From IMG/VR virus record IMGVR_UViG_3300034190_000222, positions 1 through 22,628 of that record: a stretch of DNA of 22,628 bases; one strand, 5' to 3'. The notes under the pieces are model-generated. The model made no database searches. It saw nothing but the letters and a program-made list of their open reading frames with translations, and was not told the origin of the DNA. Shown one piece after another: positions 1 through 20,370 of this stretch (positions are counted from its first letter, which is position 1; each line of letters opens with the position of its first letter). A program made the position numbers and the translations under genes. This DNA comes from a virus.

Positions 1-659
1 TGTCTATGATTGACCAATGTATGCGACCAGACTTAACGTTAGGTCAGGTATATAAAAACTTACATTTAGTTGCTGGACTTGACCCTGCATCAGCAGGATA
101 CCAAGCATCAGTACTTTGGGGTATTGATGTATATAGAGCTGAATTATATTTAGTAGATTTAGAAAATAGACGAGGGGGCGGAGTAAGGGCTGCACTTGAC
201 CAAATATCTGATTGGCTACATAAATACGATTGTAGACATTGGATAGTAGAAGAAAATGGTTTCCAAACTGCTATTAGACAAGATGAAAAGATAAAAGAAT
301 TTACTTTACGTTCAGGTGTACAGATACAGGGACACTTAACTGGAAAAAACAAACATGACCCACTATATGGTGTAGGTGCAATGGCTGATTTATTTGAAAA
401 TAAAAAAATACATTTACCTACTGGTGATGGTGGTTCAAATGCAAAGATACAGCAATATCGACAACAACTGTTATACTTTGATGGAAAACCTGTTTCAAAG
501 CGAAACAAGGAAAAAACTGATATAGTTATGGCTAGTTGGTTTCCGATGAAGGTTTTTAGAAGGCTGCAGAAAGAACGGGCTGCTGATATAGGACTAGATT
601 ACACACCTAGTTATGGAGAGTACAAGATGACAGATATGAATGACGCACCATGGGCATAG
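1..659 (+). CDS. terL: Terminase large subunit, C-terminal nuclease part (5' truncated)
   Basis: The reading frame is open from the window's left edge, so this is the C-terminal part of a larger protein. The large terminase is the packaging motor that cuts concatemeric DNA and pumps it through the portal. What remains looks like the RNase H-fold nuclease domain. Counting from the first Met (position 6), there is a hydrophobic strand ending in GLDPAS (Asp26), a second strand WIVEENGF with acidic Glu82/83, and a late KTDIVMASW with Asp172; these are the spaced acidic residues expected for two-metal nuclease chemistry. The ATPase domain must lie upstream. The end overlaps the portal start by 10 bases, the usual terL-portal pairing. 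The ATG at position 6 is probably internal, not the true start. Family assignment is from motif and context, not from a search. Confidence 0.85.
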   Translation, partial: SMIDQCMRPDLTLGQVYKNLHLVAGLDPASAGYQASVLWGIDVYRAELYLVDLENRRGGGVRAALDQISDWLHKYDCRHWIVEENGFQTAIRQDEKIKEFTLRSGVQIQGHLTGKNKHDPLYGVGAMADLFENKKIHLPTGDGGSNAKIQQYRQQLLYFDGKPVSKRNKEKTDIVMASWFPMKVFRRLQKERAADIGLDYTPSYGEYKMTDMNDAPWA

Positions 660-2440
660 AAAATTTAGACGTTAAATCTTACAAAGAAATAGTTAGAAAT
701 GCTGCTGAGTTAACTACAGGCAAATTAACACAAGAACGTCAAGTTTCTAAAGCAAGAATTAAATCAATACTTAATGGTGGTGCAGATGGTATTAAAGCAT
801 TACTAGGTAACACAATGGAGACCTCTGATGCTGACTTACTACCAGCTCCTAACATGTTGCAGTCTGGTATTGACCGACTTGCACAAAAGATTTCAGGTAT
901 ACCTCAAGTACGAGTAGATGTACCAAACAGTAATGACTCTACTAGAAGTAAAATACGTGCAGAAAAATTAGAACGTATTGTTAGTAACTATGATGACAAA
1001 CAAAATTTAAGTTTACAACTAGCACAAGCTGCAAGATGGTTGCCAGGATATGGTTACTGTGCTTGGGTAATAACAACTAAAAGAGATAAGAATGGTTTTT
1101 ATTATCCATCTGCAGAACTAAGAGACCCTTATGATACCTTTCCAGGTAACTTTGGTCCTGACCAACAACCTAGAGAAATGGCTGTTGTTAGAAGAATACC
1201 AAGATATAAACTTGCTCAAATTTATCCAGAGTTTGCTAAAGAGATTTTAAAAGAAGATGAGGATGATAAAGAGAATGATAATTACTCTGATACTGCTACA
1301 CCGTTTATGTCTTATGAAGGTGCTAGAGAACAGAAATGGGAAGATAACACATACTCTGGTGTAAGAATAATTGAATACTATGACATGGGTGGTACTTATG
1401 TTGTATTCCCAGAACGCAATATGATATTAGATTTTATACCTAACGTATTATCAACACCACCATTTGTGTTTATGAAAAGAGTTTCTTTCGATGCATTAAA
1501 AGGACAGTATGACCATGTTATAGGTTTGATGTCTATGATGGCAAAAATAAATATTATGTCATCTATTGCAATGGAAGATGCTGTGTTTACAGAAACTAAC
1601 ATATCGGGAGAGATAGAATCCGGACAATACAGAAAAGGTAGATTTGCGGTAAACCATCTAGCTCCAGGTACACAAGTTTCTAAACCACAGAACAATATAC
1701 CGTATCAATTGTTTCAACAAGTTGATAGATTAGAACGACAACTACGTATGGTTGGTGGTTACCCAGTTACTGATGACTCACAGTCACCTAACTCTTTTGT
1801 TACTGGTGCTGGACTATCAGAACTTAACTCAACTATGTCATTAATGATTAATGAGTATAGAGAAATTATAAAACTTGCAATAACCGAAATGGACTCTAAG
1901 AGATTAGAAATGGATGTAGTTCTTTCTTATACACAAGAAATACAGAAAAAACCTATGGCTGGTTTCTTTAATGGTTCTGCTTTTACAGAAAACTATAATC
2001 CTCTTGCTGATATTGGTGGGGATTTTAGAACAAGACGTATTTATGGTGTTATGGCTGGATTTGATGAACCACAAAAAATTGTAACTGGTTTGCAATTATT
2101 ACAAGCTGGTGTTATAGACACAGAAACTTTACAAGATAACATAGATGGCTTAGACAATATAGCTAAAGTACAAGAACGTATACGTAAAACTAAAGCTGAA
2201 CAAGTGTTATTTGATTCTATACTTGCTAGAGCAGCACAAGGTGATGCATCTGCAACTATGGCAGCTATAGCTATTTACGAGTTCCCTAATGAAATGACAG
2301 CTATTATGAAACAGTTTTACACTCCTGAAGAACCACAGATGACACCTGAACAGGAGATGATGATTCAACAACAAATGATGCAACAGCAGATGGGAGGACA
2401 AGGTGGACCGCCAACAATGGCACAAGCATTTGGAATGTAG
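650..2440 (+). CDS. Portal protein
   Basis: A 596-residue protein directly after the terminase, the usual place and about the usual length for a portal. The portal is the dodecameric ring at one capsid vertex through which DNA enters and leaves and to which the neck attaches. The N-terminal part has the helical start and the 'PAPNMLQSGIDRLAQKISG' type segment common in portals, followed by a mixed alpha/beta clip and stem region with YGYCAWVI and RDPYDTFPG motifs. The last ~40 residues are rich in Met, Gln and Pro (repeats of QQMM type), a common low-complexity portal tail. The start has no close Shine-Dalgarno sequence; GGAGAG lies about 30 bases upstream, so translation is probably coupled to terminase through the 10-base overlap. 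Assignment rests on position, length and general pattern. Confidence 0.85.
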   Translation: MGIENLDVKSYKEIVRNAAELTTGKLTQERQVSKARIKSILNGGADGIKALLGNTMETSDADLLPAPNMLQSGIDRLAQKISGIPQVRVDVPNSNDSTRSKIRAEKLERIVSNYDDKQNLSLQLAQAARWLPGYGYCAWVITTKRDKNGFYYPSAELRDPYDTFPGNFGPDQQPREMAVVRRIPRYKLAQIYPEFAKEILKEDEDDKENDNYSDTATPFMSYEGAREQKWEDNTYSGVRIIEYYDMGGTYVVFPERNMILDFIPNVLSTPPFVFMKRVSFDALKGQYDHVIGLMSMMAKINIMSSIAMEDAVFTETNISGEIESGQYRKGRFAVNHLAPGTQVSKPQNNIPYQLFQQVDRLERQLRMVGGYPVTDDSQSPNSFVTGAGLSELNSTMSLMINEYREIIKLAITEMDSKRLEMDVVLSYTQEIQKKPMAGFFNGSAFTENYNPLADIGGDFRTRRIYGVMAGFDEPQKIVTGLQLLQAGVIDTETLQDNIDGLDNIAKVQERIRKTKAEQVLFDSILARAAQGDASATMAAIAIYEFPNEMTAIMKQFYTPEEPQMTPEQEMMIQQQMMQQQMGGQGGPPTMAQAFGM

Positions 2441-2609: not shown

Positions 2610-2979
2610 TAGAGGCGGATATAGACAACCTGCTAATCCTGCACCTGTAGCTACACCACAAGGTGGGCAAAGGACTGACGGAGGTCCAGGTAGTTCTAAA
2701 CAACCTCTTAGAAGGCTTCCAGACGCTGATTACGGTGCAAATAAAGCATTTGTTGAACAACAACAAGCAGCTCCCCTACCTTCACAACAAGGCATAGTTA
2801 CACCTAATATCTTTGCACCTACTGAAAGACCTACTGAACCTATTACTGAAGGTGTACCAGTAGGACCAGGTAGTAGTGGTGTGCGAATGACTGACAATGT
2901 AGATATGATGCTACAAGCTATGTATGAAATAAATCCATCACCAGTTATATTAGAGTTAATAAATAATAGGAATAGATAA
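2590..2979 (+). CDS. Hypothetical low-complexity Pro/Gln/Gly-rich virion-region protein
   Basis: A 129-residue protein with a good ribosome binding site (AAAGGA at about 2576-2581). The first 20 residues are basic (KKRSNRGG) and residues 1-100 are rich in Pro, Gln, Gly and Thr, suggesting a largely disordered chain. Only the last ~25 residues (a DNVDMMLQAMYEINPSP type helix) look folded. The stop overlaps the start of the giant gene by one base (TAATG), so the two are likely translationally coupled. A basic disordered N-terminus with a short C-terminal helix could be a DNA-contacting or linker protein of the head, but I recognise no family and do not assign a function. Confidence 0.65.
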   Translation: MAKKRSNRGGYRQPANPAPVATPQGGQRTDGGPGSSKQPLRRLPDADYGANKAFVEQQQAAPLPSQQGIVTPNIFAPTERPTEPITEGVPVGPGSSGVRMTDNVDMMLQAMYEINPSPVILELINNRNR

Positions 2980-5900
2980 TGGGTTTTCACCTTTTTGATG
3001 AAAACGAAGAAATGGATTTTATCTTAGGTAATACCTATGATGATTTACAAATTGGTCAACTAAATACACAGTTTGCATTACAACCTCAAGTTGTATCTGA
3101 ATTAGAAAAAGTAACTGAAAAGTTTCAAGTACCTGCAGATATAGCATTACCTTATGTTTTAGCAGGAGGTACAGCTGAAGCAGATACTATGAAACAAATT
3201 GCAGATGATGTTGCTTACAATCGTGCTAAAAAAGAAGCTGTTATTTGGGAAGAACTACAAGAAAAATATCAATACGAATCTTTAGAAGATAATATGAAAA
3301 TGACTTTAGGTACATTACTTAAAGGAGATGCACAATTAGGTGTATGGGGATTTGCAGGATTAGATGCACTATTTCAAACATTTGGACCATCAGGTAAATG
3401 GTCTCTTGCTGCTAGCGCTCTTAACAAAGCATTACCTGGTCAACCTATGGTAGTAGGTAGGTCACAAGCATATTTAAGAGATTTAAAAGAATATGACGAT
3501 ATGTTACAAAAAGGTTATACCAAAGCTGAAGCACAAGCAAAACTACAAATTGATGTATCTTTTACTGAAGTAGAAAATATTGGTAAAGATACTAACTTAA
3601 GAGGTGATATACGTAAACATCTTGCCATGATGAAAGAAGCTAATGATATGGGTGGTGAAGCTGTTTTATTTAACATGATGCGTCAAGTAGTTAATGGTAA
3701 ACCAGTTAACTTTGACAGGGGTACAAAAATTACTTTAGAGTCTGTTAAAGCAGAAGATACACCTTATTACATTGATTTAATTAACAATTATGGTTATACA
3801 CCAGAAGAAGCTCGTAAATTTATTTACAATAAAATTGGTGAGCCAATCAAAAACTTTGACGAGAATGGTGAAATTAACTACACATCAAATGTTAAACCAA
3901 ATCAAATTAATTTTTACGCAGGTAGAAGAAAACAAAAATATTTTTTTATGGGTGACAAAATGGAACAAGATTTATACAAAGAAGATTGGACCGATAAAAA
4001 TATACTCTTGGAATACTCTCCAGGTAAAGTACATACTGGACAAATATACGAACCAGGAACTAGACAGTTTGATTTAGCATCTGGACTTATTGATGCATCA
4101 TATCAAATAGTACCTGAAATATTTGGAGGTAAGGGTATAAGAGGCGTAAGAAATTTAAGAAAAGGATTTACACGTGTTAACAAAGCTATGGAGTTATCAC
4201 AACAATTAGGTCGTGTTAAAAAAAGTGGTAAGATGCAAAGTCTTAGACCTATGGCTATTGCTAATCAAATTGCTAAAGAAGCCGCAGGTGAAGTAGACCC
4301 TTTTATTGGTAAAGGTAACTTTAGTAAAATAACAAATTCTAAAACAGGTAAGTTAAAATCATTAGATGAAGTAACAGTATCTAAAAGAGATATATATACC
4401 TCGACACGTAAAACAAATAAAAACCATACTTTTTTTGGTAAAGTACCAAGATTGTTTCAAAATACTAAAAAAGAAATACTCAATGACCCTGTTATGGTTG
4501 ATTACTGGAAAGCTTTAGCAGCAACAGGTATTGATGATTTAGCTTCTGTATCTACTAATCCAATGTTATCTAAGATGCATCCTTCAATATTAAATGAACT
4601 TGTTTTAGAAAACGATTGGAGAAAAATTAGAAAGATGCATGGAGACATGATGGATACAGGTTATGCCATTAAAGATGAAGCAGGTAATGTCAACAAGTAT
4701 AAGTTAGAACAATTTTATCAAGACGGTAGATTACCAGTACGTGGTTCTTTTGTTCTCAATAAACTTTTAAGAAATACTGCTAAAAAAGGTACACAGCTAC
4801 AACAAAAAGGTGGAGTTTATGGTAACACTATGGGTACAGCTTTATCTGCATTAGGTGATGAAACAGCTGCATATCGTAGTGCAGGTAGTTACTTAGGAGA
4901 AAAAGCACGTAAAGGTAAAGAAACTTTAGGTAAGGTAGTACCTTTTTCACCAGAAAGAAGATTTAGAAAATTAATAGACCCTAATGACGTTGATGGAAAA
5001 ATCCTCGATGATTTAGATTCTTTAGGTAATAACATTGGACCACAGAAAGCTTTAGATAAAGTAGGTGGACCTCAATTAGAATTTGAAAAATATTTAGGTT
5101 TTAGTTCTAACTTTAACTCTACATACAATCCATACTATAGAAAGTTACTTGGATTTATACCTGAACAAGGAATACCTCTTAATAGTTTACAAAACGGTTA
5201 TACACAATTAGTAAGTCATTTACAAATTAATGGTTATAGCCAAAGAGATATGTCTCGTAGATTAAAACAATTTTTAGATTTAGATTTTAACGATAAAAGA
5301 AGTATACGTGAATTTACTAAAGTACAAGCTGAAGAAGATTTAGCTTTAGTAGCTAAACGTGGTGGTCAATGGGAGTATGTTGTTAGAGCTACTAATGAAC
5401 AATTTAAAGCAGTTGACAAATCTAAAATCTATGCAGCAGGAAGAAATAAAAAAATAATACCTAACACAGGTAGTGGTTATGAAATGTACACAATAAAAGC
5501 ACCTGATGGTTCTTCTGTAAATATGCCTATGATGACTGGTTCTATGTTTTCTGAAATGACAGACAACATTGCTCCGTTATTAGATTACAGAATTATACAA
5601 GGCTCAATGAGTCGTATGTTTAAAGCTTATGATAAAGATGTTGAAATACAAAAAGTAATGACTAAAAATATTAGTGATGCTGTGGAGTATGGTAAATATA
5701 AATTGAATCAAGGTTTTGGAGATGCTACTAGAGTTAATCCTTACGAAAAAGGTGTAATTAGTGTAAAGAAATTAGAAGATGACATGGTTACTAATATGCT
5801 CAGTTTTTATACACGAAACGTATTTAAGCCATTAGTACTTGCACGATTTGCTTTTTTTACTCGTGTATTCTTAGAAGAACAAGCACGTATTGCTACAGCA

Positions 5901-8669
5901 GGTTTATCAGGTTTATACAATCATCCTTTTAAATATGTACAATGGTTAGCTTCGCATAATCCTAATTCTAAATTAGCTAAGTTACCTTTTATTAAAGGAG
6001 CAGAATACAATGATGATGGAGTACAGTTATTACAATCATTAGAAGCTATGGAAGCTGCTAAAAATAGTTTTAAACCTACACAATTAATTGGGCCTGGTTC
6101 TAAAAATAAAAAACATACAGAGTATTTAGCTAAATCAAAAGCAGAGTTAACACAAAAAAAATATGCAAAACATATGTTCTTTGAACTAATGTCTTTACGA
6201 AATGACCCTATAGCAAGAAAAGTTGCAGAGTATGGTCATGGTTCTAAAGACTTAAATAAATGGTTAGCATCACCAGCAGGTAGGTCAGCAAGAATGGACT
6301 TATTTAATTATGGTGGTAACAAATGGCAAGAGATTATTAAAGACGGTGATTTCTTAGACCAACATATTCAGTATCTTGAAACAAGAATACGTATTAAATC
6401 TGGTGGAAATATTGATTGGCAAAAAGATGCTATAAAACAAAAAGGTGGTAAGTATAGATACAAACTTGAAACAGAAGAATTAGGTAATATTGATTTACGT
6501 AATGCTATAGCTAAAGGAAAGCTATTAGATAGAAATGGTAAAGAACTAGATTTTTATGAAAATGCAGATAAAACTTTAAGAGGTTTTAAATTAAAACCAA
6601 TTATGGATGAGTTTGAGCATTTGTTATCTGGTGGATTAGATGTTGGTGACGTTAAAGTTACAAGAAATGTATTAGATGAAGCTGACCAAGGAAGTCTTGC
6701 ACAGATTGAAGAAGGATTAGATGCAGCTTTTCAAGTATTGTTTGATAATCTTATGACTAAACCTATTGGTTATTTAAATAGGTCTCCTGTTTTTGTACAA
6801 TATAGATGGGAGTATATATCAAGTAACTTTAATAAATACAGTCCTACATTACAAAAGAAATTTATTAAAGAAGCACAATCACAAGCAGTTCCTAATGCAA
6901 CTCTAAGAGAACTTAAAGGATTAATGGCTACACATAAAAAAGGTACGATAGCTGATTACGATGTTATTAATGTAGAAAGTAAAGCATTTGGACTAGCAAT
7001 GGTTAAAAACTTACTATATGATACAAAACAAAAACACGCTATATCAGATAAATTATTAAACATATTTCCTTTCGCAGAAGTTTGGTTTGAAGTATTCCAA
7101 ACATGGGGAAAGCTATTAGTAGAAAACCCTACTGTATTACGTAAAGCACATGTTGCTTTGCGTGGAGGTACATCTGCTGATGCATTAGGTAGTAGTTCTG
7201 AAGATGGATTCTTTTCTCCTGACCCAAGAAATCCAGATGATGATATGTATGTATTACCATTTGGTGGGTATTTATCTAGTCAGATTTTTGGTGATGATTC
7301 TAATACACGTATATCACCAAGAGGTTATGTACAAGGTGTTAACTTATTAGGACAAGGATTTGTACCTGGACCTAACCCATTAGTAGGATTTGCTATAAAT
7401 AAACTTATACCAAAACATGGTACAGTTTCTGAATTAATTAGGGAACAAGTTTTTGGTGACTTTCCTCCACCAGAAGATGTTGGAGATATTATAGCTATAT
7501 CACCTGTATATAAAAAATTAAGAGCTTCTTATGTAGATAAAGAAAATTTTGAAGTAATAACTGACGACAGTAAAGAAATATATAGAATGCGTGCTAATGC
7601 TACTAATGATTTGTATAGATATGGTATGGCATCAGGACAAAATAAAAAACTATATAATGAAGGTAAATTAAATACTTATCTCAATGAATTGTTTCCTAAT
7701 CAATGGACACCAGAAAGTGTTACACAAAAACAAATAGACGAAGCTTATATGGAATATGCTAAAGAAAAATCAGGTACATTATTTAGAATGCAGTTTTATT
7801 ATCAATTTATAGGTCCTACTGGTTTTAAGCCAGAGTATTTCTTAAAAGATGAAAGCGGTAAGTTATGGGGACAAGCTGTATTATTTGAGGAATACAATCG
7901 TATAAAAGAAGAAAATGAAGGTAATGATATTGCTACATACAATGAATTTTTTGAACTATATGGTGTAGAACATCCTTGGTTAATGAGTCCTAAATCACAG
8001 TCAGAAACAGGTAGACAACCTTCTAGTGTACGTGTACAAAAAGTACAAGCAGAAAATCCTGAAGTATTTAAACAACTTAAAGTTAGTGGTTATTACTTAA
8101 ACATTGACAATCCTAACGAAGAAAAAAATTGGAATGATGTAGTTTATGATAAAAACTTATTATCACCTGACCAATATCGTAGAGGTGTAAATGATACAAT
8201 AGGTTTCTTTAGGTATAAATCTTATTCAAGAAACTTAGATGCTTTAGATATTGGATATGAAAAGAAAACTTTATTAAAAAGAGTTTATAGAGAACAGCTT
8301 AAACAAACACTTCCTGGGTTTCAAGCAGATGAATATGGCCTTACTACACCTCCTTCTACTAAAGATATATTTAATGAAATGCGAGAAAAGTGGAGAAGTA
8401 TACCTTATGTTATGGAACAAGATACTGGTAAAGGTTTTGCAGAAATAATGCCTTACTGGGAAGAAATGGAACAGATATCATTAGAGTATGGAACAGATAC
8501 TTGGTGGTTAACATCTAATGATACACAAGCTTTGAGTATGAGAATTTGGATGTATAATAAAGCACAACAAATAATACAGGAATATCCTGAGTTTTGGGGT
8601 GTATGGAATGGAGTTATGTTAAAGTTATATAGAGATGACTTCGAAGTATTGGATTATATAGGCAAATAA
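2979..8669 (+). CDS. Giant (1896 aa) putative internal/ejection virion protein
   Basis: One uninterrupted 1896-codon frame, a quarter of the window. Start ATG overlaps the preceding stop by one base and has AGGA eight bases upstream. I see no signal peptide and no catalytic motif I would trust. The chain is mostly charged, lysine-rich helix, with conserved-looking hydrophobic islands: residues ~949-980 (KPLVLARFAFFTRVFLEEQ then ATAGLSGLYNHPF), ~1265-1285 (GYLNRSPVFVQYRWEYIS) and ~1360-1378 (LNIFPFAEVWFEVFQTW), then a PFGGYLSSQIFG segment near ~1426. Such islands resemble those in very large virion proteins of other tailed phages, which I know only as uncharacterised. Size, position in the structural region and coupling to neighbours support a virion role, possibly ejected with the DNA like the large internal proteins of T7-type phages. 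A tape-measure role is less likely because the tail genes look short-tailed. Function remains inferred. Confidence 0.8.
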   Translation: MGFHLFDENEEMDFILGNTYDDLQIGQLNTQFALQPQVVSELEKVTEKFQVPADIALPYVLAGGTAEADTMKQIADDVAYNRAKKEAVIWEELQEKYQYESLEDNMKMTLGTLLKGDAQLGVWGFAGLDALFQTFGPSGKWSLAASALNKALPGQPMVVGRSQAYLRDLKEYDDMLQKGYTKAEAQAKLQIDVSFTEVENIGKDTNLRGDIRKHLAMMKEANDMGGEAVLFNMMRQVVNGKPVNFDRGTKITLESVKAEDTPYYIDLINNYGYTPEEARKFIYNKIGEPIKNFDENGEINYTSNVKPNQINFYAGRRKQKYFFMGDKMEQDLYKEDWTDKNILLEYSPGKVHTGQIYEPGTRQFDLASGLIDASYQIVPEIFGGKGIRGVRNLRKGFTRVNKAMELSQQLGRVKKSGKMQSLRPMAIANQIAKEAAGEVDPFIGKGNFSKITNSKTGKLKSLDEVTVSKRDIYTSTRKTNKNHTFFGKVPRLFQNTKKEILNDPVMVDYWKALAATGIDDLASVSTNPMLSKMHPSILNELVLENDWRKIRKMHGDMMDTGYAIKDEAGNVNKYKLEQFYQDGRLPVRGSFVLNKLLRNTAKKGTQLQQKGGVYGNTMGTALSALGDETAAYRSAGSYLGEKARKGKETLGKVVPFSPERRFRKLIDPNDVDGKILDDLDSLGNNIGPQKALDKVGGPQLEFEKYLGFSSNFNSTYNPYYRKLLGFIPEQGIPLNSLQNGYTQLVSHLQINGYSQRDMSRRLKQFLDLDFNDKRSIREFTKVQAEEDLALVAKRGGQWEYVVRATNEQFKAVDKSKIYAAGRNKKIIPNTGSGYEMYTIKAPDGSSVNMPMMTGSMFSEMTDNIAPLLDYRIIQGSMSRMFKAYDKDVEIQKVMTKNISDAVEYGKYKLNQGFGDATRVNPYEKGVISVKKLEDDMVTNMLSFYTRNVFKPLVLARFAFFTRVFLEEQARIATAGLSGLYNHPFKYVQWLASHNPNSKLAKLPFIKGAEYNDDGVQLLQSLEAMEAAKNSFKPTQLIGPGSKNKKHTEYLAKSKAELTQKKYAKHMFFELMSLRNDPIARKVAEYGHGSKDLNKWLASPAGRSARMDLFNYGGNKWQEIIKDGDFLDQHIQYLETRIRIKSGGNIDWQKDAIKQKGGKYRYKLETEELGNIDLRNAIAKGKLLDRNGKELDFYENADKTLRGFKLKPIMDEFEHLLSGGLDVGDVKVTRNVLDEADQGSLAQIEEGLDAAFQVLFDNLMTKPIGYLNRSPVFVQYRWEYISSNFNKYSPTLQKKFIKEAQSQAVPNATLRELKGLMATHKKGTIADYDVINVESKAFGLAMVKNLLYDTKQKHAISDKLLNIFPFAEVWFEVFQTWGKLLVENPTVLRKAHVALRGGTSADALGSSSEDGFFSPDPRNPDDDMYVLPFGGYLSSQIFGDDSNTRISPRGYVQGVNLLGQGFVPGPNPLVGFAINKLIPKHGTVSELIREQVFGDFPPPEDVGDIIAISPVYKKLRASYVDKENFEVITDDSKEIYRMRANATNDLYRYGMASGQNKKLYNEGKLNTYLNELFPNQWTPESVTQKQIDEAYMEYAKEKSGTLFRMQFYYQFIGPTGFKPEYFLKDESGKLWGQAVLFEEYNRIKEENEGNDIATYNEFFELYGVEHPWLMSPKSQSETGRQPSSVRVQKVQAENPEVFKQLKVSGYYLNIDNPNEEKNWNDVVYDKNLLSPDQYRRGVNDTIGFFRYKSYSRNLDALDIGYEKKTLLKRVYREQLKQTLPGFQADEYGLTTPPSTKDIFNEMREKWRSIPYVMEQDTGKGFAEIMPYWEEMEQISLEYGTDTWWLTSNDTQALSMRIWMYNKAQQIIQEYPEFWGVWNGVMLKLYRDDFEVLDYIGK

Positions 8670-9959
8670 ATGGCAACAAAAGAAGAAATATTAAAACTAT
8701 TAGCTGAATATTCTGACATGATGGGTGAAATACCTGATACAGGTATATACAACATAGTAACTGTTATAAACAATTTAGAAGATAACATATATTTTTCTGA
8801 TAAACCAGAGCTATATGCTGAACTTAAACAAGCTAACTCTGATAAAGATTTAGTTAAAATGAAAGAAATTTTAGATAAAGCTACTGGTTCTAATGCTGGT
8901 ATATCTTTTGAACTTGAACAACTTGAAAAAGAAAAAGGTATGCAATTACCTGATGAACAACGTGAAGCTTTAGACCAACAGTTAAAAAATATAGATAATG
9001 ATGTAGCTAATGGTACATTAGAACCTGATGCAGCTCAGACATTAAAAGATGAAACCATAAACCAAGCTTTTTTAATTAACCCAGAAGAAGGAACTAATCT
9101 AATAACTGGAGAAGATGGTAAAAAAACTGTATCTACAGGATATTTTTCTACAGTATTACATTCACATATCTTTGCACAAGATGCATCTGTACCAGAAATA
9201 GTACAGTTTCAAAATTATTTAATTGAAAATGGTCTTGCAACAGACATGGATTTTGCTGGTACTAAAGGATTATATAGCGACACATTAAAACAAAAGATAC
9301 AAGAAGTAATGTTATGGGCTGATTCCAACTTAGATGCTGGAGTAGGTACGTCATTACATGAAAAAATTATGAATCAACCTCCTTTGTTTTTTGCAGATGT
9401 TCAGTATCAAGAAATGGATTTATCTTTTGAAAGAAACTTATTTGGTCATGCAGTAGAAGAAATGTCTAGAAGAAAAGCTGCTGGAGATGACATTAGTTTA
9501 TCTGAAGAAATTAAAGCTATGGCACAACAATACATGCCTCCTAAACCTAGTGTGTTAGAAGATATGGTTGAGTCATACTTTGTTGCTAATACAGGTAGAA
9601 GTCCTACTGCTAGTGAGTTAAATAATTGGTCAACAGCTTTAGCAGATAGTTATTCTGAATCTTATGCACAAGCTGTAACATTTATGGAAAAATCTGCTGA
9701 GTGGAAATTAACAGGTAAACCTACTTACACTACACAAGCAGGTATAGACCCTATGACAGAACAACCTAAAACTACATTTACACAAACAGGTACAGAATAT
9801 AACTTAGATGAATTATCACAATATCAACCTATGACACCTTCAGAAATATTTGAAACTAAATTTGAAGAAGAACTTGAATCTGATATAGATGCTTTTACAG
9901 CTGGTAAAGAAATGAAAGAAATGCAGAATAAACTTTTGTCTGCTATGTACGGAAAATAA
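8670..9959 (+). CDS. Putative virion protein with TGRSPT-x-x-EL motif
   Basis: A 429-residue acidic, helical protein starting directly after the giant gene's TAA (no gap) and ending in a TAATG overlap with the next gene. Residues ~20-150 are Glu/Asp/Lys-rich helix with likely coiled-coil stretches. Around residues 175-215 a segment (PEIVQFQNYLIENGL then GLYSDTLKQKIQEVM) has the rhythm of a peptidoglycan-binding-like helical repeat, but weakly. Residues ~305-320 contain VANTGRSPTASELNNW; a GR-x-P-T-x-x-E-L signature recurs, to my memory, in minor virion proteins of other phages. The coupling to the giant gene suggests the products are made together, probably as particle components. No enzymatic function is proposed. 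Confidence 0.7.
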   Translation: MATKEEILKLLAEYSDMMGEIPDTGIYNIVTVINNLEDNIYFSDKPELYAELKQANSDKDLVKMKEILDKATGSNAGISFELEQLEKEKGMQLPDEQREALDQQLKNIDNDVANGTLEPDAAQTLKDETINQAFLINPEEGTNLITGEDGKKTVSTGYFSTVLHSHIFAQDASVPEIVQFQNYLIENGLATDMDFAGTKGLYSDTLKQKIQEVMLWADSNLDAGVGTSLHEKIMNQPPLFFADVQYQEMDLSFERNLFGHAVEEMSRRKAAGDDISLSEEIKAMAQQYMPPKPSVLEDMVESYFVANTGRSPTASELNNWSTALADSYSESYAQAVTFMEKSAEWKLTGKPTYTTQAGIDPMTEQPKTTFTQTGTEYNLDELSQYQPMTPSEIFETKFEEELESDIDAFTAGKEMKEMQNKLLSAMYGK

Positions 9960-12292
9960 TGTTATCTGTTATATCACAAGCTTCTAAATCTGTATATGAT
10001 GCAAATATTACATCATACGATAAAAAATATAAAATGTTAAGTAACTTAGCTGAACGTAATTTTACATATGATAATAAAAAATATAGAAGTGTAGAACATG
10101 CATATCAAACATTAAAGTCAGGTAAATTTGATGAAAATATATATACAAAATATTTACAAGCAGATTTTAAAAATGGTATGGGTCCTAAATTAGTAGGACG
10201 TATGGGTACGTATAGACCTGTTACAGATGGTTTAATGAAAAATTTAATAAAAGAATCTTTAGCGCAAAATCCAGACAAGTTACAACTATTATTAAAAACA
10301 GGTAATGAAAAATTAACACACACAATAGGCAATGATTATTGGACTAATAGATTTCCTGAAATTTTAACAGAGCTTAGAGATGAACAGATAAGTGCAACCC
10401 CTAAAACTAAAACACCTACATCTAAAAATACATTGAAAATATATTATCCATATGCAAATAAAAACAAAACAATTAATCATGCAAACTCATATAAACAAAT
10501 TGTAGAAGCACAAAATCCTGGTTTAACTGTAGAGTTAGTAGATAATAAATCACAATCAGATATGGTATTTGGTCGTGGACAAGGTATGGGTAATCCTTTT
10601 TCAAGTGAATCATCACACAAAGAAGTAATAGTTAAAACAAGATATTTTGATGAAACAATGATTATGTATGAAGCATGGCTTAAAGGTGAACCTATGCCAG
10701 AAGGTACAGTTCCTATTACACCAGAACAACAAAAAAGATTAAATGCTTTAAAAGCAGAATGGGATAATAAACTAAAACCTTTTAAATCTAGTTCATCATT
10801 TGAAACTGTTAAAAGATATTCAGTAGAAGATTTACGTAATAACCCAGATAAAATATATATTTTTGGTGATAATACAGAAGGTTGGGGTAAAGGTGGTCAA
10901 GCAATTGTACGTGATGAATCTAATGCATTTGGTATTTCTACTAAAGATAGTCCTACACAATTTATGTCTGATAATAATTTTGAAGCTAACAAAGCAAAAA
11001 TAGATGCAGATATAGCAGCTATTAAAGCAGATGGTAGACCTATTGTATTTCCTGAAGATGGAATTGGAACAGGTAGAGCAGATTTAAAAAATAAAGCTCC
11101 TAAAACTTGGAATTATTTAGAAGAACAAATAAATGAATTAAGAGGTAAAACTTCTAATAATGCAGGTGAAATTAAATTTAACCAAGTAGACCCTAATCCT
11201 CGTTACCCTGAAAGAACAAAATATAATGCAGTCAATTCAGATATAACTTATGATTTTGCTAAAGGTGCTGTGGGTAGTGGTGCTACAAAAAAACATGCAG
11301 GAAATAAGTACAATTGGGTTGGTATTAATGATGATGGATTAATGACTAAACCAAAAAAACCTTTGGCAGAAGCAATAGCTAAAGATTTGTTAGATGGTAA
11401 AACTGTCAATATAGCTGGACATGGTATTTATAAATCTACAAGAAGAGGTTCTGTAGGTTTTACTAGACCAATGGCACAATCTGTTATAGATAATGAAATG
11501 GTTGAATTATTTCAAATAGTTGATGAGATTACTGGAGATAATCCAATTACAGGAAAAGTTATTTCTGGTGGACAAAGTGGATTTGATAAAGCTGGAGTAC
11601 AAGCAGCACATTTGTTTGGTATTCCTACTGAAGTAAATTATTCAGGAAAAGGTTTATGGAGAGATAGTACTGGTAAAGATATAGATAATTTTGATTCATT
11701 TAAAAAAAGATTTGATACCTTTGGACCACGTTCAGTAGGTGCTGCACAAGTAAATTTAGAAGGACAAGTAGATAACATTTCAAAAAAATATAATTTGCCT
11801 AAAGGAACTACTAAAAAGTTTCTTTCTTCTTTTGCTAATAATGTTTTAGACCCTATGGAATCTATTATAGTTAAAAGTCTCACAGCTGTAGGATTAGGAG
11901 CATTAGCTGGACCATTAGTAACTTATGAAATATCTAACATTCTTTTAAATATGTTTCAAAAAGGTGAACAATCAGCTGCAAAAATACAATTAGCAAACTC
12001 TGCAATTTTTGGGGAAGCTTTAGGTTTAATAGAAGACTCTTCAGAATATACCGAAGGTTTAGAATTTGAAATTATAATAGATGCTTTAGAAGGTGTTGTA
12101 AATTTTTCAGAAATGTCTCCTGTTATGTATGCAGAAGATAAAGCATTACAAGTTCCTGTTATCCGAAAAGGTGTTGATACTGTTATGAAACCTGTTTCAA
12201 AAGTTTATGATACAAGTAAAGATTATTTAAAAACAGGTGGACAACATCTTATAGATGCTGCTTCTAGAATTGGAAGGACAATTACAGAATGA
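9959..12292 (+). CDS. Multi-domain NADAR / SLOG-like ADP-ribose-processing protein in virion gene block
   Basis: A 777-residue protein with four recognisable parts. Residues 18-141 form a NADAR domain: KMLSNLAERNF, SVEHAYQ, then LTHTIGNDYW (Asp126, Trp128). NADAR enzymes remove ADP-ribose from guanine in nucleic acid and act in NAD-related pathways. Residues 199-243 (VFGRGQGMGNPF plus a Tyr/Trp helix) resemble DUF4326, without its Cys/His end. Residues 284-395 carry YIFGDN, GKGGQAIVRDE, NAFGISTKD and VFPEDGIGTGRADL, a phage/bacterial family of unknown function with a macro-like look. Residues 425-590 carry VNIAGHGIY, VISGGQSGFDKAG, GIPTEV and GKDIDNFDSFKKRF, a YpsA/SLOG-like Rossmann domain that usually binds nucleotide-derived ligands. 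Residues 636-665 are hydrophobic, then an amphipathic tail. Overlaps both neighbours (TAATG, ATGA). Likely role: handling ADP-ribose or NAD-derived molecules in the host, perhaps delivered by the particle. The NADAR and GGQSG calls are firm; the other two moderate; delivery is inference. Confidence 0.82.
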   Translation: MLSVISQASKSVYDANITSYDKKYKMLSNLAERNFTYDNKKYRSVEHAYQTLKSGKFDENIYTKYLQADFKNGMGPKLVGRMGTYRPVTDGLMKNLIKESLAQNPDKLQLLLKTGNEKLTHTIGNDYWTNRFPEILTELRDEQISATPKTKTPTSKNTLKIYYPYANKNKTINHANSYKQIVEAQNPGLTVELVDNKSQSDMVFGRGQGMGNPFSSESSHKEVIVKTRYFDETMIMYEAWLKGEPMPEGTVPITPEQQKRLNALKAEWDNKLKPFKSSSSFETVKRYSVEDLRNNPDKIYIFGDNTEGWGKGGQAIVRDESNAFGISTKDSPTQFMSDNNFEANKAKIDADIAAIKADGRPIVFPEDGIGTGRADLKNKAPKTWNYLEEQINELRGKTSNNAGEIKFNQVDPNPRYPERTKYNAVNSDITYDFAKGAVGSGATKKHAGNKYNWVGINDDGLMTKPKKPLAEAIAKDLLDGKTVNIAGHGIYKSTRRGSVGFTRPMAQSVIDNEMVELFQIVDEITGDNPITGKVISGGQSGFDKAGVQAAHLFGIPTEVNYSGKGLWRDSTGKDIDNFDSFKKRFDTFGPRSVGAAQVNLEGQVDNISKKYNLPKGTTKKFLSSFANNVLDPMESIIVKSLTAVGLGALAGPLVTYEISNILLNMFQKGEQSAAKIQLANSAIFGEALGLIEDSSEYTEGLEFEIIIDALEGVVNFSEMSPVMYAEDKALQVPVIRKGVDTVMKPVSKVYDTSKDYLKTGGQHLIDAASRIGRTITE

Positions 12293-13515
12293 GTTATAAA
12301 GTAAAATCAGATAAATCAGCAGAGCTTATGTACATAGCAGACACTGGTGAATACAAGATTATAGTAGACGTTGGCGATACAATATACGTATTTGATACAC
12401 CAGCAGGTTCTACATTGTCACAATTAACTGACTACCAAATGGTTGAAGGTGAGAATGAAAAAAAAGTTAGAACAAAACTTGGTATTTATGTAACAGATAA
12501 CACAACTTTTAACTCTGGATTTTACAACAATGATAGATTAGTAAGCGTTCCTATAAACGTTAATCAAATAACACCTGCTATAGCTGACGATGCTAATGAT
12601 GTGTTAAAAGGTTTTTTTGATGGACAAAAGAACATGATAGAAATTTATGGTGCATCTAATGATTTGTGGACAGACCCAGAGTATTTAGCAGAAATAGCAT
12701 CTCTTACTGCACAAAATGATGGAGATGTTGATGCAGCTGTAGAAGTGTTTGAAGGTACACCTGCTTATGGAGCTATCTTAGAAAGATTAAAAGTATCTGA
12801 ATCAGAATTACAAGCACAAAAACTTTTAAGGTCAGACCCATTAGGTTTTGGAAACGTAAGAGAAGATAATATATTAAACCTAGAAGGTGCAGTACAAGCA
12901 TCAGGAGGAAGTATTCCTACAGAAGCTGTACATTATTTAGCAGACTTAGTTACTAAAGGTATTATGACATTAGATGGTGCTAAAAGAAATATCATAGGTG
13001 CAACAGATAAATACAGTACTTATGCAGATAAACTAGATGCAGGTTTTGTTGGAGTATTAGAAGGCAAAGATATAACTTTAACTAAAACTGGCGAAGAAGA
13101 TGTACAAACTTTATTGGATACTTACTTACCTTCTTACTTGCACGGAACTATTGATATAGCTAAAGAAGCAGGTAAGATACGTGCTAATCCAGATTATGAA
13201 GATACACTTGTTGCAAGTATGAAAAAAGCTAGGTTTGCTGATTACAATATGTATGACGAAGATGTCAACTGGAATGTAATTTTAGCTGGTAAAAAACAAT
13301 TGTACAAAACTGTTATGGGTAATGAACCTAAAGAAGATGACCCTGCTTTAGATGCAATTATTAGAATGAATGATACAGGTAAAGCTACATCTTATCTTAG
13401 AGAAATAGGATTAGAACAAGGTAATCAAAATGTTATGGCTGATAGAGATAAAGCAGCAATGGCAGCATTTGGTGATGGTACAATAAGAAGTCAAGCATAT
13501 GTGGAGAATAGATAA
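12289..13515 (+). CDS. Putative virion protein, unknown family (408 aa)
   Basis: A 408-residue acidic protein whose ATG overlaps the stop of the NADAR gene (ATGA) with AAGGA about 12 bases upstream. The first ~100 residues are beta-rich (YKIIVDVGDTIYVFDTPAG, VSVPINVNQI). The rest is helical with many Asp/Glu and repeated A-x-x-x-G patterns, including SGGSIPTEAVHYLADLVTKGIM around residues 205-228, which looks like a small helical unit seen in minor virion proteins. The C-terminus (FGDGTIRSQAYVENR) is polar. No catalytic signature is visible. Coupled translation with genes on both sides and place before the scaffold gene suggest a particle component. Confidence 0.7.
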   Translation: MSYKVKSDKSAELMYIADTGEYKIIVDVGDTIYVFDTPAGSTLSQLTDYQMVEGENEKKVRTKLGIYVTDNTTFNSGFYNNDRLVSVPINVNQITPAIADDANDVLKGFFDGQKNMIEIYGASNDLWTDPEYLAEIASLTAQNDGDVDAAVEVFEGTPAYGAILERLKVSESELQAQKLLRSDPLGFGNVREDNILNLEGAVQASGGSIPTEAVHYLADLVTKGIMTLDGAKRNIIGATDKYSTYADKLDAGFVGVLEGKDITLTKTGEEDVQTLLDTYLPSYLHGTIDIAKEAGKIRANPDYEDTLVASMKKARFADYNMYDEDVNWNVILAGKKQLYKTVMGNEPKEDDPALDAIIRMNDTGKATSYLREIGLEQGNQNVMADRDKAAMAAFGDGTIRSQAYVENR

Positions 13516-14468
13516 TGCCAGAAATATTTAGAAAAGACTTAGTAGGTTCATACACTGTAAGTGATTTAGAATATTACGGAGATGGTACTAAAGAAAACCC
13601 AGGGTTAATTAATGATAATTATTCTTTACAGCCACAAGCTTATGACAGTGGTAGTACTTCAGGACCTAAATACAGTGCAGAAGAGGGATATACAACAGGT
13701 ACTGCTTTGTTTCCTTTTTTACCAGAAAAAGTACTTAAAGAATTTTCTAAACAATGGGCGAAATCTGGTGATTCAGAAATTGCATTAGGTGCAACTAGAC
13801 AAACAGCAGATTGGAAAGCCGAGTTTGGATATTTACAAAGAGATGATGGTTCATTAATAATGGATGAAATATCAGCATTATCTACTAAAGCAACATATGA
13901 ACAAACATTATCTGAAGTAGGTATTAAAGACTTTAGTGATTTTAAAGATGAATTTGAATCTTTAATAACAAATGAAGTGTCTGGTGCAGAGTTTCAACAA
14001 CGAATAGATATAACTTATGCAGGTGTTGTTAATCAAATACCAGAAGTAGAAGCACTATTTAGAGATAGATATGATATAAACGTTGATGCACCTACAATAT
14101 TTGGTGCTTTAATTAATCCAAAGATACAAGATAAAGTATTAGCAGGAGAAATACAAACATTACAGTTACAAGCAGAAGCTAGTTCTAGAGGATTTACTAC
14201 AAGTTTTTCAAGATTTCAAGAACTTAAAAACAGAGGTTTAAGTCAAGAACAAGCTAGAGGTATTTATCAAACTGCTAATCAAACAATAAGTCAAGCAGAA
14301 TCTATTGGTAGAGAATTAGATATAAATACATTAGAAGAAGCTACATTAGGTGAGACAAACGCTACTAAAAGATTACAAAAGATATCTGCAGAACTTCAAT
14401 CTAAACAAGGTATACAATTAGGAGCTGCAAAAATAAATGACGAAGTTACTGGACTTATAGCAGATTAG
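13515..14468 (+). CDS. Putative virion protein, helical (317 aa)
   Basis: A 317-residue protein starting in a TAATG overlap with GGAGA upstream. Residues 1-75 are polar and low in predicted structure (YGDGTKENPG, DSGSTSGPKY). From ~120 onward it is helical: an ELQQRI-like segment (SGAEFQQRIDITYAGVV), then a repeated Ala/Gln-rich stretch with LQLQAEASSRGF, FQELKNRGLSQEQARGIY and TLEEATLGETNATKRLQ. I recall this arrangement, an 'aliphatic-x-x-Q-A' helix followed by G-L-S-x-x-Q-A, in minor virion proteins of actinobacterial and marine phages, but I have no function for it. It is the last gene of the coupled block; the -10 element of the next unit overlaps the region just after its TAG. Confidence 0.7.
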   Translation: MPEIFRKDLVGSYTVSDLEYYGDGTKENPGLINDNYSLQPQAYDSGSTSGPKYSAEEGYTTGTALFPFLPEKVLKEFSKQWAKSGDSEIALGATRQTADWKAEFGYLQRDDGSLIMDEISALSTKATYEQTLSEVGIKDFSDFKDEFESLITNEVSGAEFQQRIDITYAGVVNQIPEVEALFRDRYDINVDAPTIFGALINPKIQDKVLAGEIQTLQLQAEASSRGFTTSFSRFQELKNRGLSQEQARGIYQTANQTISQAESIGRELDINTLEEATLGETNATKRLQKISAELQSKQGIQLGAAKINDEVTGLIAD

Positions 14469-15167: not shown

Positions 15168-16286
15168 ATGGGAGCAATATCCCTAACTAACAATTCAATT
15201 TACTCCCAGAAGATTAATAACTTTTCTGGTGAGTTATTCCGTGTAGGTGGTCAAAGAACTCCTTTCTTGTCAGCAACAGGAGGATTAAACGGAGGTAAGG
15301 TTTTACAATCTACTTTCTGGCAAATCCAAGCTGCTGATAGTGCTGTAGTTTCCTCTGAGCCAACAAAAGCTCAAGAAGGTGCGCAGCCAACAGAGTATCT
15401 TGGAAGAGATAGAGTCGCTTATACAGGCGTTACTCAAATCTTCCATAAAGGAATTAAGATGACCTACACAGCTATGGCAACATATCAACACCAAAATCCA
15501 TTCGATTTGAGTGCAAACATTGCAAACTCATCTGATGGTGATGGAACAGTTACAGCTGCTGACAAACTTGCTTTGTCCGGTAGTAACCCAATCGTTGATG
15601 AGTTCGCAGAGCAAATGTCTATGGCACTTGAAAAAGTGGCTAGAGAAGTAGAGTGGTTCGCATTCAACGGTACATTCGCAGATGGTGCTAATACAACACC
15701 AGGTGCTGGTACAAGAGAAATGCGTGGACTTAACGAGTATTGCGCACTAAACGCTAATGCTAACAATACAGTTGCACCTACATTTGTAGGCGGTAACGTA
15801 CACTATTGTGATGCATCTGGTGATGGTTCAGGCGCAGATAAAGTACTTTCATGGGATTCAATCTCAGAAGGACTTAAGAGACTATATGATGCTCACGCAC
15901 CAATGCAGTCTCCTGTACTTTGTGTTACTCCTAAGCAACTACTTGACTTAAATAAAGAACTACTTGCTGGTACAGTTGGTATTACAGGAGCAATCATTCC
16001 TAGAGATAGAAATGTTGCTGGTATCGATATTGATACTATTGTAACTCCATTCGGTTCAATCGGAATGATGGTTATAGACCCTAATATCATGCCTGCAAAC
16101 AGTGCATTTATTTTGGACTTTGCGTTTATACAACCAGTGTTCACAAATATCCCAGGATATGGAACAGTGTTTGTTAGAGACATAGACCAAGATGATTATG
16201 CAAGAGTATCAAAAGCTATCTACATGGAAATGGGATACGACTTTGGTCCTCCTTCATATCACTTGCTATTCAAAGACGTAGCTTAA
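15168..16286 (+). CDS. Major capsid protein (HK97-fold, SU10/DUF5309-like)
   Basis: A 372-residue protein after the scaffold with a GGAGG ribosome binding site. It should form the head shell. The pattern resembles the DUF5309/SU10-type HK97-fold coat: N-terminal arm, EPTKAQEGAQP (residues 64-74) on the E-loop side, VTQIFHKGIKMTYTA (88-102), the spine-helix segment FAEQMSMALEKVAREVEWFAFNGT (146-169) and REMRGLNEY (183-191). An insertion at 119-140 has SSDGDGTVTAADKLAL, an EF-hand/dockerin-type calcium loop spacing (Asp123, Asp125, Thr127, Asp132). Codon use differs from neighbours: Phe is mostly TTC (about 12 of 19), whereas the first 11 Phe codons of the giant gene are all TTT, as expected for selection on a very highly expressed gene. 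The fold assignment is from pattern, not search. Confidence 0.88.
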   Translation: MGAISLTNNSIYSQKINNFSGELFRVGGQRTPFLSATGGLNGGKVLQSTFWQIQAADSAVVSSEPTKAQEGAQPTEYLGRDRVAYTGVTQIFHKGIKMTYTAMATYQHQNPFDLSANIANSSDGDGTVTAADKLALSGSNPIVDEFAEQMSMALEKVAREVEWFAFNGTFADGANTTPGAGTREMRGLNEYCALNANANNTVAPTFVGGNVHYCDASGDGSGADKVLSWDSISEGLKRLYDAHAPMQSPVLCVTPKQLLDLNKELLAGTVGITGAIIPRDRNVAGIDIDTIVTPFGSIGMMVIDPNIMPANSAFILDFAFIQPVFTNIPGYGTVFVRDIDQDDYARVSKAIYMEMGYDFGPPSYHLLFKDVA

Positions 16287-19701: not shown

Positions 19702-20369
19702 TGGCAGATAGAGCAACACAAATAGTAAACTTTTATGAAACAACTATTACTAATAGTGATTTCAGTGCAGGTGCTACATCATTTACTGTAAATACAGCTC
19801 CTACTACTAACGGTAGTACAGGTATAACTTCTGCTACAACAGGTAATCAAAACTCTTGGATTTATTTAGTTATTGACCCAGACTCTACAAGTAACAGAGA
19901 AATTGTTATTGTTAAAACACACTCATCTGGTTCGACAACATTTAGTGATGTTGAACGAGATTATGATGGAAGACAAGAAGCTGGTGGAGCTCCAGCAGAT
20001 ACAGGTATTGCTCATGGTATAGGCACGACAGTTAGACTTGCTGTATTAGCTCAACATATACAAGACCAAAACGATAGAGTTGCTACAAATATTTCATCAT
20101 TAACAACAGCTGTATCAGATTTTAATACAAACAGTGCTGCAGCAATAGTAACTTTTAATAGTAATGGTACTACTGCAATAAGTAATATTAATGCTTCATC
20201 AGCTACAGCTATGATTAATAATGCTACTGATGGTACTTCTGCAACTGTAGATGTAGCAGCAGATTACGCGTTAATTTATGATGCAACAGATAGCACAGCT
20301 AAAAAAGTTTATGTAAGTCAAGTTGCACCTCCAGTTGAAGTACACCCATTTTTAATTATGGGAGCATAG
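19701..20369 (+). CDS. Tail-attached fibre base protein (222 aa)
   Basis: ATG 19701 overlaps the previous TAA and has TTGGAG upstream; the frame is open nine codons further (to 19674) but that part lies inside the preceding gene. The first ~120 residues form a beta domain with a typical 'ftV..aP', 'W-I-Y-L-V-I-D-P' and 'E/D-R-D-Y-D-G-R' motif and a G-x-x-A-x-x-H-x-x-G-T-T-V run (GIAHGIGTTVRLAVLAQ), the same class as in the adaptor gene. Residues ~130-200 are a Ser/Asn/Ala/Thr-rich repetitive stretch (ISSLTTAVSDFNTNSAAA) that probably forms a trimeric coiled shaft. The chain ends at HPFLIMGA. It is likely the protein that attaches a fibre to the nozzle. Confidence 0.6.
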   Translation: MADRATQIVNFYETTITNSDFSAGATSFTVNTAPTTNGSTGITSATTGNQNSWIYLVIDPDSTSNREIVIVKTHSSGSTTFSDVERDYDGRQEAGGAPADTGIAHGIGTTVRLAVLAQHIQDQNDRVATNISSLTTAVSDFNTNSAAAIVTFNSNGTTAISNINASSATAMINNATDGTSATVDVAADYALIYDATDSTAKKVYVSQVAPPVEVHPFLIMGA

Positions 20370-20370
20370 C

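What the first reader, a model, noticed from the sequence alone, without database searches (positions are those of the whole stretch)
9959..12292. NADAR + DUF4326-like + FGDN/GGQA + SLOG-like domains fused in one phage protein inside a virion gene block
Seen: residues 18-141 carry NADAR motifs, 199-243 a GRG-x-x-x-GNPF segment, 284-395 a FGDN...GGQA...NAFGIST...VFPEDGIGTG domain, and 425-590 a SGGQSGFDKAG...GKDI domain. Known: NADAR removes ADP-ribose from guanine and opposes DarT-type DNA ADP-ribosylation; SLOG/YpsA folds bind NAD- or nucleotide-derived ligands; members of these families recur together in NAD/ADP-ribose gene neighbourhoods. Inference: a four-module ADP-ribose/NAD processor, one base from structural genes on both sides, with a hydrophobic tail. 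It could be packaged and injected to disarm DarTG or TIR/NAD-based defence at entry, the reverse of T4 Alt, which is an injected ADP-ribosyltransferase.
Basis: partly seen in the sequence, partly recalled or inferred. Interest (0 to 1): 0.88.

Follow-up and report, generated by a model that had tools for sequence, protein, structure and literature searches.

The report
Swappable anti-ADP-ribosylation virion cargo protein
A marine phage carries, among its particle genes, a protein built from several exchangeable domains that bind or cut ADP-ribose; close relatives swap in different ADP-ribose enzymes at the same spot, which suggests a cargo gene evolving quickly against bacterial defences that use NAD or ADP-ribose.

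Summary
Window 9959-12292 encodes a 777-aa protein with a phage-type NADAR domain (catalytic E46, K53, H121 present), a truncated DUF4326-like module, DUF7831 and a YpsA-like SLOG domain, inside the portal-to-capsid gene block. The 'hydrophobic tail' is a family-specific helical C-terminal domain.

New here: the gene is a hypervariable cargo slot. In about 60 related marine phages the flanking genes are conserved while this gene runs from absent to 1,518 aa. The nearest relative (93-95% DNA identity on both sides) carries NUDIX instead. In 50 whole records all 6 NUDIX and all 3 NADAR hits lie in this slot. Single modules have been exchanged recently (94-95% DNA identity, ending at domain edges) between otherwise divergent phages. 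The putative host order holds both NrtR-DarT-NADAR and NrtR-Macro-DarT loci.

Packaging and injection remain inferred. The general idea (packaged NADAR/Macro/SLOG/Nudix/DUF4326 effectors) was published in 2017-2022. New variant of a known kind; interest 0.62.

The parts
9959..12292 (+). Slot gene: 777-aa modular cargo protein
   Evidence: ORF; syntenic, length-variable gene in relatives
9998..10384 (+). NADAR module (residues 14-142), phage (His) type; E46, K53, H121
   Evidence: PF08719 E=1.3e-5; YbiA 2b3w E=4.6e-5; residues invariant in A9; roles from PMC11543638 and PMC11125620
10415..10783 (+). DUF4326-like module (residues 153-275), C-terminal half missing
   Evidence: PF14216 E=0.001, below cut-off, positions 8-51/82; 95.4% DNA identity to L086 over 371 bp
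10796..11143 (+). DUF7831 module (residues 280-395), probable macrodomain; FGDN 302-305, GGQA 312-315, TK 328-329, DGIGTG 367-372
   Evidence: PF25176 E=3.5e-32; model pLDDT 90.8; top structural rows are macrodomains, Z 5-6.1; 94.0% DNA identity to L088
11174..11728 (+). SLOG (YpsA-like) module (residues 406-590); SGGQSGFDKAG 536-546
   Evidence: cpYpsA E=4e-4; PHROG 10774 E=7.5e-10; model pLDDT about 90 over most of 425-557
11729..11749 (+). Junction motif RSVGAAQ (residues 591-597), a variant of the G-x-SLGAAK motif
   Evidence: same motif at the C-terminus of the g13515 family and at payload/anchor junctions of other slot proteins
11768..12289 (+). C-terminal anchor domain (residues 604-777), helical, found only in this phage family
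   Evidence: Shared with slot proteins carrying other or no payloads; 84.9% DNA identity to L004
8670..9959 (+). Upstream flanking gene (429 aa, unknown function), 1-bp overlap with the slot gene
12289..13515 (+). Downstream flanking gene (408 aa, unknown function), 4-bp overlap with the slot gene
13515..14468 (+). 317-aa conserved protein; its relatives end in ...LGAAKKGDEVTGLIAD
2979..8669 (+). 1896-aa conserved giant protein of unknown function, same block
650..2440 (+). Portal protein (by similarity to Streptomyces phage portals)
   Evidence: tblastn E=4e-13
15168..16286 (+). SU10-type major capsid protein
   Evidence: PF17236 E=1.2e-41

Best explanation
The gene is a cargo slot in the portal-to-capsid operon of a family of about 44-kb marine phages. 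Its protein consists of exchangeable N-terminal modules that act on the ADP-ribose moiety, joined to a family-specific C-terminal helical domain. Here the payload is NADAR + truncated DUF4326-like + macrodomain-like DUF7831 + SLOG. Proposed mechanism: (1) the protein is made late with the head proteins [inferred from operon position]; (2) the C-terminal domain seats it in the virion [inferred: that region is kept while payloads change]; (3) it enters with the DNA [inferred]; (4) NADAR hydrolyses ADP-ribose from guanine, and the macrodomain-like module removes ADP-ribose from thymine or from other adducts or free derivatives, while SLOG binds or cleaves an ADP-ribose/NAD-derived ligand [activities inferred from family and conserved residues]; (5) this blunts DarTG-type DNA ADP-ribosylation or ADP-ribose-based signals at entry. 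Shown here: the modules, their exchange, the restriction of NADAR and NUDIX to this slot, and the presence of both DarTG types in the putative host order. The modular ADP-ribose cargo reading is about 85% likely; virion packaging about 60%; DarT-type DNA damage as the main target about 40%, soluble ADP-ribose derivatives about 40%.
For: Domain hits. NADAR E46/K53/H121 match the catalytic set given in PMC11543638 and PMC11125620. DUF7831 model: the 19 best structural rows (Z 5.2-6.1; 102-110 of 123 residues aligned) are all macrodomains, among them DarG 5m31, TARG1 2lgr and Poa1p 6lfq; it is related to A1S_2505 (hhalign 85%, E=6e-6), whose PTK and GT motifs line up with NFPTK and LGT in a macrodomain encoded next to DarT (weak on its own). 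Slot nature. NUDIX replaces the whole payload in the nearest relative. All 6 NUDIX and 3 NADAR hits in 50 whole records are in the slot. Over 86 loci and 4,132 six-frame ORFs every NADAR, DUF4326-like, DUF7831, A1S_2505, SLOG and NUDIX hit is in the slot. Module exchange at DNA level and under purifying constraint (dN<dS). In 7 of 15 pairs with flanks at least 85% identical the slot keeps under half of the flank identity. DarTG1 and DarTG2 in the putative host order.
Against: No proteomics; packaging rests on position only. The NADAR and anchor parts of the model have low confidence, and NADAR is below Pfam's cut-off. The DUF4326-like module is truncated. The macrodomain assignment is structural and moderate (Z about 6; Foldseek E about 0.8; no sequence hit to PDB macrodomains). 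Many relatives have short, unrecognised or no cargo, so it is dispensable. T4 gp30.3, of the same His type, de-ADP-ribosylates guanine in vitro but did not rescue E. coli from DarT1 (PMC11125620). The host link rests on two phage contigs binned into one MAG.
Confidence: 0.55

Rival explanations
1. Late intracellular protector, not injected: the gene is merely co-transcribed with head genes, and the enzyme protects replicating or packaging DNA (or NAD pools) of the producing cell.
For: Only position argues for packaging; overlapping start and stop codons show co-translation, not packaging. PMC9503650 itself notes that such contexts may instead protect the packaging machinery.
Against: The same C-terminal domain is kept under very different payloads and also exists with no recognisable payload, which suggests a role of its own, such as docking. 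That domain was found only in this phage family.
Confidence: 0.25
2. The payloads target soluble ADP-ribose derivatives (cADPR-type signals, ADPr-1''-P, free ADPr) or salvage NAD, rather than DNA adducts.
For: PMC9503650 argues this for phage NADAR/Macro/SLOG/Nudix. NUDIX, which cuts the diphosphate, occupies the same slot in sister phages, and its nearest curated models are NadM-Nudix and the ADPr-responsive repressor NtrR (below cut-offs). SLOG is predicted to bind ADPr-derived ligands.
Against: NADAR and the DarG-like lysine motif are the two known activities against DarT1 and DarT2 adducts, and both DarTG types occur in the putative host order.
Confidence: 0.4
3. Structural head protein with degenerate binding domains: the N-terminal modules are decoration or regulatory sensors without catalysis.
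For: Truncated DUF4326-like module; cargo dispensable.
Against: Catalytic residues conserved across NADAR relatives at 43-50% identity; invariant loop residues across DUF7831; replacement by NUDIX with a near-intact Nudix box.
Confidence: 0.1

Closest known systems
Polyvalent proteins (Iyer et al. 2017, PMC5512222)
   Same: Large multi-domain proteins encoded by phages near portal/terminase genes, predicted to be packaged and injected; they include ART, GNAT and NUDIX-linked domains.
   Different: The 2017 text does not mention NADAR or SLOG. Here the C-terminal domain is new, and the gene is a slot with whole-payload and single-module exchange among close relatives.
Viral NAD/ADP-ribose network: packaged NADAR, Macro, SLOG, Nudix, DUF4326 (Iyer et al. 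2022, PMC9503650; Iyer et al. 2021, PMC7824862)
   Same: Same domain families; fusions of DUF4326 with SLOG, Macro and NADAR; prediction that they are packaged against ADP-ribose-based defence.
   Different: Those cases are mostly myoviruses and jumbo phages with standalone genes. Here it is a roughly 44-kb marine family with one dedicated, swappable locus, and DUF7831/A1S_2505 is proposed as the macrodomain part.
T4 gp30.3 (phage NADAR; PMC11125620)
   Same: His in place of the Glu/Asp catalytic residue; E and K conserved.
   Different: Standalone gene; here fused to other modules and placed in the virion block.
DarG macrodomain and TARG1 (PMC5179494, PMC8501950)
   Same: Fold match of DUF7831; TK motif at the place of the catalytic lysine (K80 in DarG, K84 in TARG1) in a profile alignment.
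   Different: Shorter domain (about 120 aa), no significant sequence match, no DarT-binding domain.
T4 Alt
   Same: Phage enzyme of ADP-ribose chemistry thought to enter with the DNA.
   Different: Alt adds ADP-ribose to host proteins; the modules here would remove or degrade it. No ART domain was found.

Membership tests
NADAR superfamily, phage (gp30.3, His) type | Sequence match to the NADAR/YbiA profile | tested here: met
   PF08719 E=1.3e-5 though below the curated cut-off; YbiA 2b3w E=4.6e-5 with a family profile
NADAR superfamily, phage (gp30.3, His) type | Conserved Glu and Lys seven residues apart, plus His as third catalytic residue | tested here: met
   E46, K53, H121; invariant in A9; roles from PMC11543638 and PMC11125620
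NADAR superfamily, phage (gp30.3, His) type | YbiA fold | tested here: inconclusive
   Model confidence 34-83 over residues 1-145; not usable
DUF4326 | Match to PF14216 over the whole domain above cut-off | tested here: not met
   14.5 bits against 25, positions 8-51 of 82 only; 'DUF4326-like, truncated'
DUF7831 | Match to PF25176 above cut-off | tested here: met
   111 bits against 27, E=3.5e-32
Macrodomain (DarG/TARG1-like) | Macro fold | tested here: inconclusive
   The 19 best VIA rows are all macrodomains, Z 5.2-6.1, 102-110 of 123 residues, but Z is under 8 and Foldseek is weak
Macrodomain (DarG/TARG1-like) | Catalytic lysine at the place of DarG K80 / TARG1 K84 | tested here: inconclusive
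   TK (K329) nearly invariant in DUF7831; PTK of related A1S_2505 aligns with NFPTK of a DarT-linked macrodomain; profile probability is low
SLOG (YpsA-like) | Sequence match and Rossmann-type fold | tested here: met
   cpYpsA E=4e-4, PHROG 10774 E=7.5e-10; confident alternating alpha/beta model with generic Rossmann-type matches
Polyvalent protein | Two or more effector domains in one polypeptide | tested here: met
Polyvalent protein | Encoded among portal/terminase/head genes | tested here: met
Polyvalent protein | Packaged in the virion and injected | not testable with these tools
   Needs proteomics and a delivery assay

The most novel reading that the evidence does not exclude
A dedicated 'warhead slot' in a phage virion: one head-gene locus with a fixed C-terminal docking domain, in which whole ADP-ribose-directed payloads (NUDIX; NADAR/macro/SLOG/DUF4326 combinations) and single domains are exchanged by recombination, so that one particle can carry activities against both guanine (DarT1) and thymine (DarT2) DNA ADP-ribosylation at entry; a short G-x-SLGAAK motif between payload and anchor, shared with a neighbouring head-block protein, would serve maturation cleavage or docking.
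Probability: 0.3. Interest if true: 0.85.

Novelty: new variant of a known kind. Interest (0 to 1): 0.62.

Why it matters
If true, it gives a natural, testable case of phage particles pre-loaded with anti-ADP-ribosylation enzymes, and a locus where the arms race can be read directly: same phage backbone, different payload. It would make the open prediction that NADAR, Macro and Nudix proteins are packaged and injected testable with defined pairs (payload against DarT1, DarT2 or soluble ADP-ribose signals). It also offers a fold and a function hypothesis for DUF7831 and A1S_2505, two unassigned phage families, and a short motif that may mark cargo docking or processing.

Tried and rejected
- A single-protein scan of viral contigs found no relative of the whole protein; relatives came through the capsid protein and an alignment.
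- Full-length model: too large and partly low-confidence for fold search; matches were generic Rossmann folds. DUF7831 was refolded alone.
- PDB sequence search with DUF7831 and A1S_2505 profiles gave only chance hits (triosephosphate isomerase and others), so the macrodomain reading rests on the fold and motif order.
- PHROG 9995 as a divergent NADAR: co-linear motifs but hhalign 22%; not claimed.
- Giant 1896-aa protein and the 408-aa and 317-aa neighbours: no family or structure hit worth naming; a virion RNA polymerase or ejection role was considered and left open.
- PADLOC: no defence-system model on the slot proteins beyond chance.
- Host: only one MAG, with two co-binned phage contigs, one a terminally redundant 43.8-kb genome, not integrated; treated as weak.
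- Anchor domain outside this family: none found.
- NUDIX as a generic MutT housekeeping gene: its nearest curated models are NAD-related, but all below cut-off; substrate left open.
Full report
1. Observation. Window 9959-12292 (+) is one 777-aa ORF. It overlaps the upstream gene by 1 bp (TAATG) and the downstream gene by 4 bp (ATGA). Pfam gives DUF7831 at 285-390 (E=3.5e-32), NADAR at 21-127 (E=1.3e-5, below cut-off) and cpYpsA at 534-557 (E=4e-4); PHROGs 1017, 2072 and 10774 cover the same three regions. DUF4326 scores only 14.5 bits over half its length. The window is a virus record of 22.6 kb with TerL, a portal-like protein and an SU10-type capsid protein. The gene lies between portal and capsid genes, where other phages keep MuF-type effectors (PMC5512222).

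2. NADAR. A profile of the window protein and relatives hits YbiA (2b3w, E=4.6e-5). In six relatives the E-H-A-Y-Q-x-x-K motif and a histidine are invariant; in the window these are E46, K53 and H121. PMC11543638 and PMC11125620 describe E and K as superfamily catalytic residues, with Glu (YbiA), Asp (DarT1-linked) or His (phage gp30.3) as the third. T4 gp30.3 removes ADP-ribose from guanine in vitro but does not rescue cells from DarT1 (PMC11125620).

3. DUF7831. Folded alone with 22 sequences it reaches pLDDT 90.8. Foldseek is weak (macrodomains at E about 0.8), but in the realignment the first 19 rows are macrodomains of alphaviruses, yeast Poa1p, Thermus DarG, human TARG1 and TTHA0132 (Z 5.2-6.1, 102-110 residues), above unrelated rows, which start at Z 5.0 with a designed hydrolase and otherwise stay at 4.7 or below. 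The tool warns that Z under 8 can be a common arrangement. DUF7831 is related to A1S_2505 (hhalign 85%, E=6e-6), which replaces it in the relative L058. A1S_2505 aligns end to end, though at low probability, with the macrodomain next to DarT in L127, motif by motif: FGSN/NTVN, GKGAAL/GAGIAL, LPTK/FPTK, IGTNLAG/LGTQLGG. The lysine in that place is the catalytic one in DarG and TARG1 (PMC8501950). I take the macrodomain reading as about 75% likely.

4. The slot. Eighty relatives were fetched through the capsid protein. Upstream and downstream genes are conserved and in the same order, while the gene in this place runs from absent (L041, L042, L044, L045, L047, L057, L067) through 154 aa to 1,518 aa. 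Residues 604-777 of the window protein recur, at 23-70% identity, in slot proteins with other or no recognisable payload. The nearest relative, L002, is 94.6% identical in DNA up to the start codon and 92.7% from the last 57 bp onward, but carries a NUDIX domain instead of the four modules. Six of 50 whole records carry NUDIX and three carry NADAR; all nine hits lie in the slot gene and none elsewhere. Family-specific profiles over 4,132 ORFs of 86 loci put every NADAR, DUF4326-like, DUF7831, A1S_2505, SLOG and NUDIX hit in the slot; only PHROG 9995, a recurring module of unknown function, also appears once elsewhere. In 7 of 15 pairs whose flanking proteins are at least 85% identical, the slot protein keeps less than half of that identity.

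5. Module exchange. At DNA level, residues 152-275 are 95.4% identical to L086, 280-395 are 94.0% identical to L088 and 89.2% to L089, and 604-759 are 84.9% identical to L004, while flanking genes of these loci are only weakly similar or not alignable. The edges coincide with the module edges. Within modules dN is below dS (0.035/0.10, 0.053/0.11, 0.131/0.33). The window protein is therefore a recent chimera assembled from whole domains.

6. Host and defence. The only hit of the capsid protein in bacterial genome contigs is a MAG labelled Actinomycetota (1.1 Mb; GC about 34% for phage contig and window). It holds two phage contigs of this family; one is a terminally redundant 43.8-kb phage genome. 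The link is by co-binning only. In 42 genomes of that order two have DarT: one as NrtR-DarT-NADAR (NADAR-DarT1 E=2.4e-78), one as NrtR-Macro-DarT (Macro E=2.5e-13). Both DarTG classes thus exist in the putative host order, next to the NAD regulator NrtR.

7. Mechanism. The common denominator of all identified payloads is the ADP-ribose moiety: NADAR (N-glycosidic bond to guanine), macrodomain-like (distal-ribose linkages), NUDIX (diphosphate), SLOG and DUF4326 (predicted ligands; PMC9503650). The position and the conserved C-terminal domain suggest a cargo that rides in the particle. Steps shown: modules, conserved residues, slot, exchange. Steps inferred: packaging, injection, activity, target. 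Which target dominates (DarT adducts or soluble derivatives) is open.

8. Known versus new. Polyvalent proteins, and packaged NADAR/Macro/SLOG/Nudix/DUF4326 effectors, are published predictions (PMC5512222, PMC7824862, PMC9503650). A search of the held papers found no text on DUF7831, and A1S_2505 only in two papers on Acinetobacter. New here are the dedicated slot, its turnover, the module-level exchange, the C-terminal domain, and the macrodomain proposal for DUF7831/A1S_2505. Hence: new variant of a known kind.

Noticed in passing
window 11729-11749; C-terminus of 13515-14468; relatives in L005, L014, L019, L022, L040, L051, L086, L088: A short motif G-x-[ST]LGAA[KQ] sits 16-17 residues from the C-terminus of the 317-aa protein family (25 of 79 ORFs) and at the payload/anchor junction of slot proteins (11 of 64, counting a variant in the window), and nowhere in the other virion families. 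It may be a maturation-protease or docking site.
   Followed up: partly
L082 (OQ221537.1) 4001-4507; L083 (MT774382.1) 4001-4510: The closest phage-database matches of the SLOG domain lie in giant crAss-like phage proteins; one is annotated as a putative RNA polymerase, the other spans over 4,000 aa. A second case of SLOG in a very large, possibly virion-packaged protein.
   Followed up: no
L068, L010, L018, L022, L040, L051, L086 slot proteins; L021 19845-21116: PHROG 9995 is a recurrent slot module of unknown function next to DUF4326-like, DUF7831/A1S_2505 and SLOG modules; it also occurs in Pseudomonas jumbo phages. It may be a divergent NADAR (weak).
   Followed up: partly
L127 and L128: Two genomes of the putative host order carry NrtR-Macro-DarT and NrtR-DarT-NADAR: DarTG1 and DarTG2 each placed next to the NAD regulator NrtR.
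   Followed up: partly
G053 contig C36 (L131-L133): A phage genome of this family (43.8 kb with about 10 kb of end repeat) was binned into an Actinomycetota MAG, together with a second related phage contig (C30) that has a separate SLOG protein.
   Followed up: partly
window 8670-9959: The gene upstream of the slot also has a variable N-terminal part (residues 1-155) and a conserved C-terminal part (156-428); it may be a second, milder variable locus.
   Followed up: no
L063 4057-6933: The gene in the slot position of this more distant relative carries a GNAT acetyltransferase domain (PF00583, E=6.9e-6), a domain also listed for polyvalent proteins.
   Followed up: no
window 19674-22277: The tail-side genes match relatives only in their N-terminal parts (for example 19674-20369 over residues 10-147), as expected for exchangeable tail fibres.
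   Followed up: no
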